64,000 bases of DNA from Bacillota bacterium (lineage in GTDB: Bacteria > Armatimonadota > HRBIN16), in the NCBI GenBank assembly GCA_023511455.1, contig JAIMBJ010000004.1, forward strand, positions 1 through 64,000, given 5' to 3'. Made by a program: the position numbers and the translations under genes. The notes beneath the pieces were generated by a model that was not told the origin of the DNA, ran no database searches, and was given only the letters and a program-made list of their open reading frames with translations. Within the stretch, counting starts at the first letter, position 1. The number at the start of each line of letters is the position of its first letter. This document shows, piece by piece, positions 25,506 to 31,209 of this stretch.

Positions 25506-25934
25506 CTAGATGGACTCACCCAGGTATTCTCCCACCTGTCGCAGGAACTCCAGCAAATCCGTCACCTCTTCACGGGCAATGCGCAGCACCTGCCGGTCGT
25601 CCACCTGCCAGTAACGGTGTACCAGCAGGTTCCTGAAGCGTGCCATCGCCTGCAGACGCTCGGCAAGCGAGGCGTCGAGGATGCCTCTGTGGTGAAGAGA
25701 GGCGAAGCACTCTGCGTAAGCGGAGGGAGCAATCCCGCCCAGCCGTGCTATCAGGTGCGTGCAGATGCTGGCGGCGTCTTATATCGCCTGAATGAGATGC
25801 AGCTTCAGCGAGTCGATGTGCAGTTCGTTGCCCCAAAACTGCTCATCGGGCAGGGCTACCAGACGCTGAACCTTGTCCAGGTTTTGGCGCAGGGACACCG
25901 CTCGCGCCAGAAGAACGTGCAAGTCTGGTTTCAT
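25506..25934 (-). pseudogene. HepT-like toxin with premature stop
   Basis: The frame from ATG 25934 to TAG 25506 codes a HepT-type protein of 142 amino acid positions: MKPDLHVLLARAVSLRQNLD at the start, HLIQAI before an in-frame TAA at codon 52 (25779-25781), then DAASICTHLIARLGGIAPSA and MARFRNLLVHRYWQVDD. The RX4HXY motif (RNLLVHRY) of HepT HEPN ribonucleases lies after the stop. The frame is otherwise intact, so a single point change could explain it (for example CAA to TAA). The ATG overlaps the stop of the intact MntA-like gene (ATGA). The toxin is probably dead, or restored only by readthrough. Confidence 0.88.
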
Positions 25935-26356
25935 CCCTGTAGCGCCTCCTTGAGCATCTGTCGCGCATGATAGTCAAAGTCCATAATCTCCAGCCACAGC
26001 CTCTCCACGAAACGGCACCGAAACTCCTCGTCTCGGCTGCATAACAGTTCCCCTGCACTCCCCGTGAACTGCACCCCTCGCGGCGCGGTGTTGAGAACCT
26101 GCACGTCGACCGGCAATCCCAGGCGTCCCTCTATGGTATCCGCAAGGCGGAAAGCGGTCTTTAGCCACTCTCCATTACTGACCATGTCCTCACGCAGGTA
26201 GACGGCGATATCGATATCTTCGAAAGGCACATCCAGCAAGAAGGAACCGTGCAGGTAGGCGAACAGCACCTCCTCTCGCGACTCCAGCAGGTGCTGAATC
26301 TGCGCTTTGACCTGCTGCTTCTGCTCCGGTGAAAGGCTGAACCGACGCATTTCCAT
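25931..26356 (-). CDS. mntA: MntA-like nucleotidyltransferase antitoxin
   Basis: A 141-residue minimal nucleotidyltransferase. The GSX9DXD signature is HGSFLLDVPFEDIDIAVYL, with a third acidic residue in LPVDVQVLN. The start chosen is ATG 26356 after AGGTGG; a GTG three codons upstream is also possible. MntA enzymes AMPylate a Tyr in the RX4HXY motif of HepT toxins and so block them. The HepT gene that follows has a nonsense codon. It is a clear paralogue of the protein encoded at 50187-50588, which has the same GSFLL....FEDIDIAVY core. Confidence 0.88.
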   Translation of the reverse strand: MEMRRFSLSPEQKQQVKAQIQHLLESREEVLFAYLHGSFLLDVPFEDIDIAVYLREDMVSNGEWLKTAFRLADTIEGRLGLPVDVQVLNTAPRGVQFTGSAGELLCSRDEEFRCRFVERLWLEIMDFDYHARQMLKEALQG

Positions 26357-26444
26357 ATCGACCACCTGCCCTTATCATACTGACGCCATCGCTATTCTGT
26401 CAACCGGGCACGCCGTTACTCCCTACCTGCACCTGCCCTTCAGG

Positions 26445-26450: not shown

Positions 26451-26477
26451 ACCATTAGCCTGTGCAGGAGCCATGCG

Positions 26478-28643
26478 ATGACGAACCTGTTCGATATGGA
26501 AGCAGTCTCTGCTGCCGACATCCTCTTCGGCTGGAACCACACGCCGCGCCTCGTGGCGGTGGAGATGACCGAAACCGAAGCCATCCTGCATCAGCTTTCA
26601 GCAGACGGCACACGCACCAGCTGGCGCGAACCGTTCACGCCCTGGCTGTTGACCACCCAGCCATACTCCGACATCGACGCGCAGTGGGAGCGGCTGGAAG
26701 GCGGGGGCTATTGTTGGATGGCGAAGTTCCGCTCTTGGACGGAATATCAGAGTGCACGCCTGCGCCTGCGCGATATGCATGTGGACGTTCTCGCTTACGG
26801 CAGCCCCGAACGGCAGTTCCTGATGCTGTCGGGCTACACACTGTTCAAGGAGATGAGTTTCGACGACGTGCACCGAATGCAGGTGGATATCGAAACCGCC
26901 GGACTGAATCCCCAGGACCCCGCGAATCGCGTGCTGTTAATCGTGCTGCACGATAATCGGGGCTGGAGTGAGGTACTGGACGATATCGATGAAGCACAGA
27001 TGCTCCGGCGGTTCGTGCAGCTCATGCGCGAGCGCGACCCCGACGTGATTGAAGGACACAATCTATATGGTTTCGACCTTCCGTATCTCATCGAACGCGC
27101 CCGGCGACACGGTATCTCCCTTGCTGTCGGACGCAGTGGGCAACTGATGACCATCGGCAGTGAGCGCAATCTGCCCATCGGTGCGATTAACCGTCCCTAT
27201 CGCCCCGTGTACATCCCCGGACGGCACGTGGTGGACACCTATTTCGCGGTACAGCGCTACGACTGGGCAAAGGGCGACCTGCAGAGCTACGGTCTCAAAG
27301 AGGTGGCGCGCGCCTACGGCATCGCCGATGAGGAGCGGGTGCTAATAGACCGCGCCGACCTGCGCGAGCAGTGGCAATCCAACCCCGAAAGGGTGCGACA
27401 GTACGCCCTGCAGGATGCTCAGGAGACCGCCCGGCTGGCGGAGATTGTACTGCCTACCGAGTTCTACCAGACCCAGATGGTTCCCGACACCTACCAGCAC
27501 GTTGCCACCGCTGGAAGCGGTGAAAAGATTAATGCTATCTTCGTACGGGCGTATCTGCACGCAGGTTATGCCATTCCCAGGCCTCAGCCCGCGCGCGACT
27601 TCCCCGGAGGATACACGGAGGTGCGTCGCACAGGGGTCATCCCGCGCGTGGTGAAGGCGGATGTCGAAAGCCTCTATCCCAGCATTATGCTGGTTCACCG
27701 CATCGCACCCGCTTCGGACAAACTGGGCGTGTTTCTGCCTGCGCTGGAAGAGCTGACTCGCCGCAGACTGGAAGCGAAAGCCGAACTGCGCCGCGCCACC
27801 GACCCGCGCCAGCGCGCCTACTGGGACGGCATTCAGGGTTCTTTCAAGGTATTGATTAATTCCTTCTACGGCTACCTGGGCGCAAACTTCCCTTTCAACG
27901 ACTTCGATGCCGCACAACGGGTGACCGAGGAGGGGCGCAAAATCGCCATGCAGCTGGTGGACGCGCTGGAGCGTACCGGCAGCAAGGTGATTGAAGTGGA
28001 CACCGATGGGGTCTACTTCCAGCCGCCAGAGGGCGTAGAAGGACAGGAGGCGGAAGAGGCATACGTACAGCAGATAGCGGAGACGTTGCCTGTCGGTATC
28101 CGTCTCAGCTTCGACGGGCGATACCGCGCCATGATCTCGGTGAAAACCAAGAACTATGCCCTGCTGGACTATGAGGGCAACTGGACATACAAAGGGGCAT
28201 CTTTGCGCTCCCGTGCCGACGAACCGTACGGAAGGCAGTTCATTGCCGAGGTATTGCAGAAGCTGGTGGAGGGCGACCGCGACGGTATCGCCCAGTTATA
28301 CCGTGAAACCATCCTGCGCATCCTCAACGGTGACGTTCCGATCGAAGAGCTGGCGCGGCGGGAGCGCGTGACCGAAAAGACCTTCACCAGCGAGAACAAG
28401 CGCAAAGCCGCCGAGGCGGTGCGGGGCGTCAGTGTGGGCGATTATGTGAATCTGTATCAGCGGGCGGACGGCTCGCTGGGCATGATGGAGGACTATGCAG
28501 GCGACGAAGACCGCGAACACTACGCGAACAAGCTCTACCGCTTTGCCCTGCGCCTGCGCGAAGCCATCGGTGACGACTTCGACCTCCTTTTCCCCCGTCC
28601 CGAGCAGGTCATCCGCAAACAGCAACAGCCGAGCCTGTTCTAA
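26478..28643 (+). CDS. polB: Family B DNA polymerase (Pol II-like)
   Basis: A 721-residue family B DNA polymerase with proofreading, starting at 26478 after AGGAG. Exonuclease motifs: DIE (137-139), NLYGFD (195-200) and YALQD (309-313). Polymerase motifs: A, DVESLYPSI (395-403); B, KVLINSFYG (457-465); C, DTDG (508-511); and a later KTKNYALLDYEG. All metal-binding aspartates are present, so it should be active. In bacteria such enzymes (E. coli Pol II) work in repair and damage tolerance. It is somewhat shorter than Pol II. Its 3' end overlaps the convergent CARF-RelE-like gene by 4 nt. Confidence 0.95.
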   Translation: MTNLFDMEAVSAADILFGWNHTPRLVAVEMTETEAILHQLSADGTRTSWREPFTPWLLTTQPYSDIDAQWERLEGGGYCWMAKFRSWTEYQSARLRLRDMHVDVLAYGSPERQFLMLSGYTLFKEMSFDDVHRMQVDIETAGLNPQDPANRVLLIVLHDNRGWSEVLDDIDEAQMLRRFVQLMRERDPDVIEGHNLYGFDLPYLIERARRHGISLAVGRSGQLMTIGSERNLPIGAINRPYRPVYIPGRHVVDTYFAVQRYDWAKGDLQSYGLKEVARAYGIADEERVLIDRADLREQWQSNPERVRQYALQDAQETARLAEIVLPTEFYQTQMVPDTYQHVATAGSGEKINAIFVRAYLHAGYAIPRPQPARDFPGGYTEVRRTGVIPRVVKADVESLYPSIMLVHRIAPASDKLGVFLPALEELTRRRLEAKAELRRATDPRQRAYWDGIQGSFKVLINSFYGYLGANFPFNDFDAAQRVTEEGRKIAMQLVDALERTGSKVIEVDTDGVYFQPPEGVEGQEAEEAYVQQIAETLPVGIRLSFDGRYRAMISVKTKNYALLDYEGNWTYKGASLRSRADEPYGRQFIAEVLQKLVEGDRDGIAQLYRETILRILNGDVPIEELARRERVTEKTFTSENKRKAAEAVRGVSVGDYVNLYQRADGSLGMMEDYAGDEDREHYANKLYRFALRLREAIGDDFDLLFPRPEQVIRKQQQPSLF

Positions 28644-29671
28644 GGATGCCACTCCTCGAACTGTTCGCGCGGGTAGTGCAGCCGATATACCCCTTCAGCG
28701 AGGGCGGTTTCATAGTCTCTGTGCGACCAGAAAACTTCGCACACCCACACGTTGCCATCCTCTTCATAGTAAAGGATGCGCTCCGCCACGTTGACGGAGG
28801 GGTAGACCAGACAGTCGCTTCCGTGTACGCTATGGGAGTTCTGGCGACGACGTTCGGGGTTTTGTAAGTGCTTGAGCCGCTCGCGCAGCACATCGCGGAT
28901 GGACGGCTCTGCCGAGCTCATCGCGCGAACCGCCCGTTGATGCAGGAAGAGCGGCGTGGGACGTTCTGCTTCTACCCGCGCCCGATACGCCTCGAAGAAC
29001 GCTTCCCCTGCGGGCGAAAGCATGGTGTAGCCCTCCTCCTCCACCAGCAACAGGCGAATCTCGTCGGGCAGAGGACGCAAACGGCGGTCGACCTCTGCAG
29101 TAGGGCGCAGGTCGGCGTTTATCCACTCGAAAAAGTCCGCATAGGTATCCATCAGGCTGAAGTCCCATCCGATGGGGGTCGGCGGTAACTCGATAATCTC
29201 CCTGAAGGCTTCGTGGATATAGTACACAGGGACGTCGAACAGCAACCCTACCAGCGTGGCGTAGGCAATCTCCGCCTTGAACCCGCCCGTTGCGTTAATC
29301 AACACCTCGCGCCCTGCCGCCCGCTCATCGCGGACGCAGCTTACCATTTCAGCAACCAGCGAGCGCAAACCGCGCATCTTGAACCGGCTTTCGCGGTATT
29401 GCAGGTCAGCCACCTCGCGCAGCTCGGCTGTGTATCCGCTGTTCTTGTAGAAGGTTGCCAGAGCCTCTGCCGCACGCCTGCCCTCCTCGGTCTGAGAGTG
29501 CAGGAACACGATCTTGTCCCCTGGCTGAAGCAGCCTACTGAGCGAGTTCGTCTCCGCACTGGCTTTTTCTGGCTCGGTGAAACGGAGGTATATCTGCAGG
29601 TCGTTCTGTTTACCCGCCCGTTCGGCATTGGTCAACAGGGAAGTGCCCACTGTCGCGATGATTGTGCGCAT
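28640..29671 (-). CDS. Orphan CARF-HTH-RelE-like protein (Cami1-like)
   Basis: A 343-residue protein starting at ATG 29671 after GAGGGTG. Residues 1-175 form a CARF domain of the APE2256/TIGR02619 kind: VGTSLLTNA (8-16) and INATGGFKAEIA (125-136). Residues ~180-235 look like a winged helix (LPDEIRLLLVEEEGYTMLSP). Residues ~255-330 resemble a RelE mRNA interferase (SIRDVLRERLKHLQNPE, then ERILYYEEDGNVWVCEVFWS). This order matches Cami1, the CARF-RelE ribonuclease activated by cyclic tetra-adenylate from type III CRISPR systems. No cas gene or CRISPR array lies within the window, so its signal must come from elsewhere or be something else. It has its own near-consensus promoter. Confidence 0.75.
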   Translation of the reverse strand: MRTIIATVGTSLLTNAERAGKQNDLQIYLRFTEPEKASAETNSLSRLLQPGDKIVFLHSQTEEGRRAAEALATFYKNSGYTAELREVADLQYRESRFKMRGLRSLVAEMVSCVRDERAAGREVLINATGGFKAEIAYATLVGLLFDVPVYYIHEAFREIIELPPTPIGWDFSLMDTYADFFEWINADLRPTAEVDRRLRPLPDEIRLLLVEEEGYTMLSPAGEAFFEAYRARVEAERPTPLFLHQRAVRAMSSAEPSIRDVLRERLKHLQNPERRRQNSHSVHGSDCLVYPSVNVAERILYYEEDGNVWVCEVFWSHRDYETALAEGVYRLHYPREQFEEWHP

Positions 29672-29705: not shown

Positions 29706-29735
29706 ATTATACTCGATGAGCATTTCAGTAGACAA
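29706..29735 (-). promoter_or_regulatory. Promoter of the CARF-RelE-like gene
   Basis: TTGTCT and TATAAT with 18-nt spacing on the minus strand, the -10 lying 35 nt before the ATG. The element suggests constitutive expression as a standby sensor. Confidence 0.65.
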
Positions 29736-29821: not shown

Positions 29822-29843
29822 GGCACACGCGATGTGCTAAGAT
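29814..29843 (+). promoter_or_regulatory. Amidase promoter
   Basis: TTGACA and TAAGAT are spaced by 18 nt, with TGC before the -10 (extended -10), 31 nt before the ATG. Confidence 0.55.
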
Positions 29844-29874
29844 GCTTCCACCAGATGCCAGAGGTGACAGTGCC

Positions 29875-31209
29875 ATGCGGTTCGTGTACATATTCCTGAT
29901 AACGATCGGCGTGGTGACTGGTACCTGCCGTATGTATGCCTCTGAGGACTACCCGCCTGCGCGATGGGTTCCCGCCTACTCGGGCAACTACACGGTTTCC
30001 AACCGCCCCAGCACCTACCCGATATGGTATGTCATCGTTCACGTGGTACAGGGTTCGTATAACAGCTGCATCTCCTGGTTCCAGAATCCCAGCTCGCGCG
30101 TCAGTGCGCACTACGTCATCCGTTCCTCCGACGGCGAAGTGACGCAGATGGTTCGCCACAAGGACATCGCATGGCACGCGGGCAACTGGTGGTACAACTG
30201 CCGCTCCATCGGCATCGAGCATGAGGGCTGGGTACACGACTCCAAGTGGTTTACCTACGCCATGTATTATTCCTCCGCCACGCTGGTGCGCCACATCTGC
30301 CGAATCTATGGTATCCCGCGCACACGCAGCTACATTCTTGGGCATGTAGAGGTGCCCGGTGCGACACACACCGACCCCGGTCCCAACTGGAACTGGGATT
30401 TCTACATGCAGATGGTGCAGTCTTCGGCGATACTGGAAGAGGCTTCCGTGCCGCTGACCCTGCGCCCAGGTGAAGTCGCCTCCGCGCGACTGGTTTTCCG
30501 CAACACGGGCGACATCACCTGGCAACCGATGGGCACGAACCCTGTGCGTCTGGGCACACAGAACCCACGCGACCGCCATAGCCCCTTCTATACGTCGCGC
30601 GCATGGATTTCGCCCAACCGCCCCACCGCGGTAGCCGCCCCCACCCCACCGGAAGCCTTCGGGGAGTTTCACTTCACCCTCACCGCGCCGGAACGCTACG
30701 GTACCTACGAGGAGAGTTATCAGCTCGTGCGCGAGGGGGTTACCTGGTTCGGTCCGATAGTTACCTTCCGCATCGATGTCGTGCCCTGGGACATCATTAT
30801 CGATAACGTGAGCGAGAACTTCAGCGTACGGGGCACATGGAACACGGGAACCACAGCGCCGGGCAAATATGGCGCGGACTACCGCTGGACCAGCACCAAT
30901 CCCCGTAGCACCGCATGGGCACGCTGGTACCTGAATGTGCCTAAAGACGGCTACTACGATGTGTATGCCTGGTGGAGTCAGGGAACCAATCGCAGCACCG
31001 CCGCCCGTTATGAAATCGTGCACCGCACCGGCACGGCAGTCAAGGTGGTGAACCAGCAGACAAACGGCGGCAAGTGGAACTGGTTGGGACGATACCAGTT
31101 TGTGCGGGGAGGCGGTTTTGTCTACCTGCGCCCGAACGCACCATCGGGGTACGTGGTTATCGCCGACGCGGTGCGAATCGTCGGCCCCGTGACACCGGCA
31201 AGGCGATAG
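29875..31209 (+). CDS. Secreted N-acetylmuramoyl-L-alanine amidase with Ig-like and golvesin-like domains
   Basis: A 444-residue exported protein starting at 29875 after AGAGGTG. The signal peptide is MRFVYIFLITIGVVTGTCRM and following. Residues ~30-180 are an Amidase_2 (PGRP-like) zinc hydrolase: WYVIVHVVQGSYNSCISWF (Zn His), AHYVIRSSDGEV, HAGNWWYNCRSIGIEHEGW (Glu/His) and HTDPGPNWNWDFY (His and Asp). Residues ~190-300 resemble an NBR1-like Ig domain (VFRNTGDITWQPMGTNPVRL). The last ~120 are golvesin/xanthan-lyase-like (GYYDVYAWWSQGTNRST). It probably cuts the lactyl-peptide link of peptidoglycan at the cell surface, with two C-terminal domains for attachment or carbohydrate contact. The next gene starts 11 nt downstream, likely cotranscribed. 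Confidence 0.88.
   Translation: MRFVYIFLITIGVVTGTCRMYASEDYPPARWVPAYSGNYTVSNRPSTYPIWYVIVHVVQGSYNSCISWFQNPSSRVSAHYVIRSSDGEVTQMVRHKDIAWHAGNWWYNCRSIGIEHEGWVHDSKWFTYAMYYSSATLVRHICRIYGIPRTRSYILGHVEVPGATHTDPGPNWNWDFYMQMVQSSAILEEASVPLTLRPGEVASARLVFRNTGDITWQPMGTNPVRLGTQNPRDRHSPFYTSRAWISPNRPTAVAAPTPPEAFGEFHFTLTAPERYGTYEESYQLVREGVTWFGPIVTFRIDVVPWDIIIDNVSENFSVRGTWNTGTTAPGKYGADYRWTSTNPRSTAWARWYLNVPKDGYYDVYAWWSQGTNRSTAARYEIVHRTGTAVKVVNQQTNGGKWNWLGRYQFVRGGGFVYLRPNAPSGYVVIADAVRIVGPVTPARR

What the first reader, a model, noticed from the sequence alone, without database searches (positions are those of the whole stretch)
28640..29671. Orphan CARF-winged helix-RelE-like protein (Cami1-like) without CRISPR genes
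The sequence shows an N-terminal CARF of the APE2256 kind (VGTSLLT, TGGFK), a winged helix and a C-terminal RelE-like domain. Cami1, a CARF-RelE ribonuclease, is activated by cyclic tetra-adenylate made by type III CRISPR complexes. No cas gene, Cas10 or array is visible within 29 kb left or 34 kb right, and the gene has its own near-consensus promoter. Either it serves a distant type III locus, or it answers another cyclic nucleotide.
Basis: partly seen in the sequence, partly recalled or inferred. Interest (0 to 1): 0.8.

Follow-up and report, generated by a model that had tools for sequence, protein, structure and literature searches.

The report
Remote Cami1-like CRISPR type III effector
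This is a Cami1-type protein predicted to cut messenger RNA on ribosomes when the cell's type III CRISPR complexes raise an alarm; its gene sits far from the CRISPR genes, but the same genome carries two type III systems able to make the signal, so it is not an effector without CRISPR.

Summary
The minus-strand gene 28640-29671 encodes a 343-residue CARF / winged-helix / RelE protein. It matches the PADLOC CARF7-CARF_RelE model full length (6e-120). Its predicted structure (pLDDT 90) matches Cami1 best (PDB 8phj/8phb); the C-terminal domain modelled alone matches Cami1 and RelE-family toxins. Ligand-pocket and putative catalytic residues are conserved, and dN/dS is about 0.05-0.14.

The same genome, on other contigs, holds a III-B operon (Cmr1-6, Cas10, CARF-HEPN) and a III-A operon (Cas6, Csm1-5, repeats), both with intact GGDD cyclase motifs. 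No SMODS-type CD-NTase was found. In other genera the closest relatives mostly sit inside type III operons, and 19 of 20 Armatimonadota genomes with a clear homologue also have type III genes.

In the window's genus (hot-spring Armatimonadota near HRbin16) the gene lies mostly at one conserved site, tail to tail with a family-B DNA polymerase, with its own promoter-like sequence, away from CRISPR. The genus's III-A loci seen with flanks have no local effector. A new member of a known kind; the remote, conserved placement is the interesting part.

The parts
28640..29671 (-). CARF7-wHTH-RelE (Cami1-like) gene, 343 aa
   Evidence: PDLC01937 E=6e-120; model, best PDB match Cami1
29162..29671 (-). 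CARF domain (about residues 1-170); S11 and K132 align with S12/K169, the positions mutated in ring nuclease Sis0811 entries
28964..29161 (-). linker / winged-helix-like region (about residues 171-236)
   Evidence: secondary structure of model; Foldseek alignment to Cami1 spans it
28643..28960 (-). RelE-like domain (residues 238-343), with conserved R298, H317, Y320
   Evidence: alignment to 8phb
29706..29735 (-). promoter-like TTGTCT-N18-TATAAT upstream of the gene, element shared in the genus
26475..28643 (+). family B DNA polymerase, convergent, ends overlap by 4 bp with the effector gene; the same junction occurs in 6 genus members (synteny marker, not part of the system)
29842..31209 (+). 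N-acetylmuramoyl-L-alanine amidase, flanking gene (synteny marker, not part of the system)

Best explanation
The gene encodes a Cami1-type effector of type III CRISPR immunity that works in trans. When the III-B (contig C60) or III-A (contig C28) complex recognises foreign RNA, its Cas10 palm domain makes cyclic oligoadenylate, most likely cA4. cA4 binds across the CARF dimer, the change is passed through the winged helix, and the RelE domain cuts mRNA in the ribosomal A site, halting translation. The CARF pocket may then slowly cleave cA4 and switch the effector off. Shown here (sequence, model, genome content): the architecture, the fold, conserved pocket and putative catalytic residues, purifying selection, intact GGDD cyclase motifs in two Cas10s of the same genome, and type III operon context of homologues. 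Inferred: the ligand, the ribosomal target, self-limitation, and which of the two Cas10s drives it.
For: Full-length PADLOC CARF_RelE match. Model pLDDT 89.7, best PDB matches Cami1 8phj/8phb E~1e-18. RelE domain alone matches Cami1 and RelE. Profile aligns with Cami1 8phb residues 60-355; H317 aligns with a His that is Ala in the ribosome-bound 8phj construct. Own genome: two Cas10 genes, six RAMP hits, PADLOC-typed as III-B and III-A, GGDD present. Homologues in type III operons: G004, G173, G031, G037, G043, G030; 25 of 32 full-length relatives outside the genus have type III core genes in the fetched flanks. Phylum survey: 16 of 20 genomes with a strong homologue have Cas10 against 55 of 271 others (Fisher P=8e-8); RAMPs found in three of the other four. 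Remote placement seen within single contigs: 265 kb from Csm1 in G184, 975 kb from the III-B Cas10 in G164. dN/dS 0.05-0.14. Literature: cA4-activated Cami1 cleaves mRNA at the A site, and in-trans signalling between type III loci was proposed (PMC11229360); Cami1 has ring nuclease activity (PMC12409355).
Against: No ligand or activity was tested. The phylum statistic counts related genomes; one per genus it is weaker (P=0.009). The genome is a 73-contig draft, so distances in this genome itself are not known. The III-B operon already has its own CARF-HEPN effector and Csm1 keeps an HD motif, so the remote protein may not be needed by either. Ribosomal-stalk binding was not examined.
Confidence: 0.87

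Rival explanations
1. The protein answers a cyclic nucleotide that is not made by Cas10 (for example CBASS-like), independently of CRISPR.
For: The gene is remote from cas genes, at a conserved chromosomal site with its own promoter-like sequence, across the genus.
Against: No SMODS CD-NTase in the genome (one family only); 19 of 20 genomes with a strong homologue have type III genes; relatives lie inside type III operons; the CARF is of the Cami1/Crn1 type, which binds cA4 (literature).
Confidence: 0.04
2. It is a decayed or exapted remnant that no longer acts as an effector (for example only a CARF ring nuclease that removes cA4).
For: Both ring-nuclease positions are kept and the gene is detached from its operon.
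Against: The RelE part is under purifying selection, with R298, H317 and Y320 conserved.
Confidence: 0.05
3. It is a standalone RelE-type toxin-antitoxin component that borrowed a CARF domain.
For: RelE fold; promoter-like sequence of its own.
Against: It converges on DNA polymerase B and no antitoxin-like small partner gene was noticed beside it; the closest relatives sit beside type III cas genes.
Confidence: 0.03

Closest known systems
Cami1 of Allochromatium vinosum (PDB 8phb, 8phj)
   Same: CARF-wHTH-RelE order and fold, TGGFK motif, putative catalytic His, Foldseek E~1e-18
   Different: About 22% identity over the structural alignment; gene outside the CRISPR locus here
CARF7 CARF_RelE group of PADLOC (PDLC01937)
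   Same: Full-length match E=6e-120
   Different: Most full-length relatives found here are in or beside type III operons; this genus keeps it elsewhere
Crn1-type ring nucleases Sis0811 / SSO1393 (7pq2, 3qyf)
   Same: Same CARF family; S12/K169 equivalents S11/K132 conserved
   Different: Those lack the RelE domain
RelE toxins (4fxe, 4v7j)
   Same: C-terminal fold
   Different: No antitoxin partner noticed; fused to a ligand sensor

Membership tests
Cami1 / CARF7-RelE effectors | N-terminal CARF of APE2256/CARF7 type | tested here: met
Cami1 / CARF7-RelE effectors | C-terminal RelE fold | tested here: met
Cami1 / CARF7-RelE effectors | Overall fold like solved Cami1 | tested here: met
   8phj/8phb rank 1-4; the relative placing of the domains differs (rmsd >11 A over the whole chain)
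Cami1 / CARF7-RelE effectors | Putative catalytic residues of the RelE site kept | tested here: met
   H317, R298, Y320; their role is inferred
Cami1 / CARF7-RelE effectors | Type III Cas10 with cyclase motif in the same genome | tested here: met
Cami1 / CARF7-RelE effectors | Gene inside or within about 4 kb of the type III locus (criterion of published surveys, not of the protein) | tested here: not met
   met by most relatives outside the genus
Cami1 / CARF7-RelE effectors | Activation by cA4 | not testable with these tools
   needs biochemistry
Cami1 / CARF7-RelE effectors | mRNA cleavage in the ribosomal A site, stalk binding | not testable with these tools
   needs biochemistry
CBASS / other cyclic-nucleotide effectors | Cognate CD-NTase in the genome | tested here: not met
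   PF18144 only

The most novel reading that the evidence does not exclude
The protein is a chromosomally fixed CARF-RelE switch that has left CRISPR control and answers a different, still unknown nucleotide signal.
Probability: 0.04. Interest if true: 0.75.

Novelty: new member of a known kind. Interest (0 to 1): 0.36.

Why it matters
Published effector surveys read only a few kb around type III loci (PMC11229360 used 4 kb), so remote effectors are missed. This genus is a clean natural case: one Cami1-like gene at a conserved chromosomal site with its own promoter-like sequence, while Cas10s elsewhere diverge faster (III-B Cas10 mostly 54-57% identical to the window genome's, against 80-86% for the effector) and the III-A loci seen have no local effector. 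It makes the proposed in-trans sharing of cOA signals between type III loci directly testable.

Tried and rejected
Absence of the gene in G181 looked like a loss but is uninformative, because the neighbouring polymerase gene is missing from that draft too. Genomes seeming to lack Cas10 (G165, G052, G031) have RAMP genes, so they are not type III-free; G182 (80% complete) stays open. Weak Cas10-palm hits near 20-30 bits were not counted, as they may be GGDEF proteins. No phage record carries a homologue; six plasmid records do, one being the A. vinosum plasmid. Makarova 2020 on CARF classes is not held. Rfam found only a tRNA in the window.

Full report
What is there. The gene 28640-29671 on the minus strand codes for 343 residues. 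The N-terminal part is a CARF of the APE2256/CARF7 type, and one PADLOC model, CARF7--CARF_RelE, covers the protein from end to end at E=6e-120. An AlphaFold2 model from 17 homologues has mean pLDDT 89.7; its best PDB matches are the four Cami1 chains, followed by Crn1-type ring nucleases. The C-terminal 106 residues modelled alone (pLDDT 95.7) match Cami1, E. coli RelE, RelE on the 70S ribosome and other RelE/YafQ/YoeB toxins. E-values of that small-domain search are only about 1e-3 to 1e-1, but probabilities of the top matches are 0.97-1.00 and they are nearly all one superfamily.

Residues. S11 and K132, invariant in 17 homologues, align with S12 and K169 of Sis0811, the positions mutated in the ring-nuclease entries listed. 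R298 and Y320 are invariant and H317 nearly so; the profile alignment places H317 on a histidine of Cami1 that is alanine in the ribosome-bound 8phj construct. That these form the RelE active site is inference. dN/dS within the genus is about 0.05-0.14 where it could be computed (several pairs failed and dS is partly saturated).

Is there CRISPR in the genome? Yes. Contig C60 carries Cmr1-Cas10-Cmr3-Cmr4-Cmr5-Cmr6 followed by a CARF-HEPN gene with an RNDFAH motif; contig C28 carries Cas6-Csm1-Csm2-Csm3-Csm4-Csm5 followed by two copies of a repeat before the contig ends. Both Cas10s keep GGDD, and Csm1 also keeps an HD motif. No SMODS-type CD-NTase was found.

Relatives. In a survey of 291 Armatimonadota genomes (phylum named from the record titles of relatives), 20 have a strong homologue (E up to 1e-55); 16 of these have a Cas10 hit of at least 35 bits, against 55 of 271 others, and RAMP genes are present in three of the other four. 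Outside the genus many of the closest relatives sit in type III operons: beside Csm5 and a CARF-HEPN in G004, beside Csm1 in G173, after CARF-HEPN and Cmr6 in G031 and G037, after Cmr6 in G043 and G030. In GTDB contigs, 25 of 32 full-length relatives outside the genus have type III core genes within the fetched flanks, including Meiothermus, Calidithermus and Thermus; several of the other seven lie on short contigs.

The genus. In six genus members including the window the gene ends in a 4-bp overlap with the same family-B DNA polymerase; G180 has about 1.7 kb between them; amidase and cytochrome genes flank it on the other side in the window, G184, G180 and G186. In G184 the gene and Csm1 are on one contig 265 kb apart. 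A TTGYCY-N18-TATAMT element stands upstream in the window and three or four of the six relatives compared. The III-A loci of G179 and G180, seen with flanks, carry no recognisable effector, and that of the window shows none before its contig ends. The effector is 80-86% identical in the genus, while III-B Cas10 is 54-57% identical except in G185. The gene was therefore most likely fixed at this place in an ancestor of most or all of the genus while the CRISPR complexes kept changing.

How it most likely works. By analogy with Cami1 (PMC11229360 and the PDB entries): cA4 from either Cas10 binds the CARF dimer and turns on ribosome-dependent mRNA cleavage; intrinsic cA4 cleavage, reported for Cami1 (PMC12409355), may turn it off. 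That it acts in trans, and possibly as the effector of the otherwise effector-less III-A locus, is inference from gene content; signalling between loci was proposed from statistics in PMC11229360.

Verdict. What is unusual is the stable separation from the CRISPR loci.

Noticed in passing
window 25506-26371 (-): MntA-like nucleotidyltransferase (Polbeta, PF18765) followed by a HepT-like HEPN frame with an R-x4-H-x-Y motif; the hepT frame is interrupted by an in-frame TAA at about 25779-25781. Uninterrupted copies exist in two genus relatives (L046, L049).
   Followed up: partly
window 26475-28643 (+): Family B DNA polymerase in a bacterium, highly conserved in the genus (89-96% identity).
   Followed up: no
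L011 13552-13652 (G000:C28:47551-47651): Two exact copies of a repeat ATTGCAACGCCTGCCCCGACCAATAGGGG 72 bp apart after csm5, with no other copies in the assembly: a minimal or cut-off CRISPR array.
   Followed up: partly
L076 14966-16603: A 545-codon open frame beside the second type III locus of G183 has no Pfam match; possible unknown effector or unrelated.
   Followed up: no
L050, L052, L053 (G164, G165, G169): Another family (f17, Fimbriimonadales by the title of one record) also keeps a full-length CARF-RelE away from its type III genes, so detachment may have happened more than once.
   Followed up: partly
L060-L074: Relatives with the same CARF but a different C-terminal domain also occur, several beside type III genes; the window protein's CARF half also matches PADLOC CARF_DUF2103 models.
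   Followed up: no
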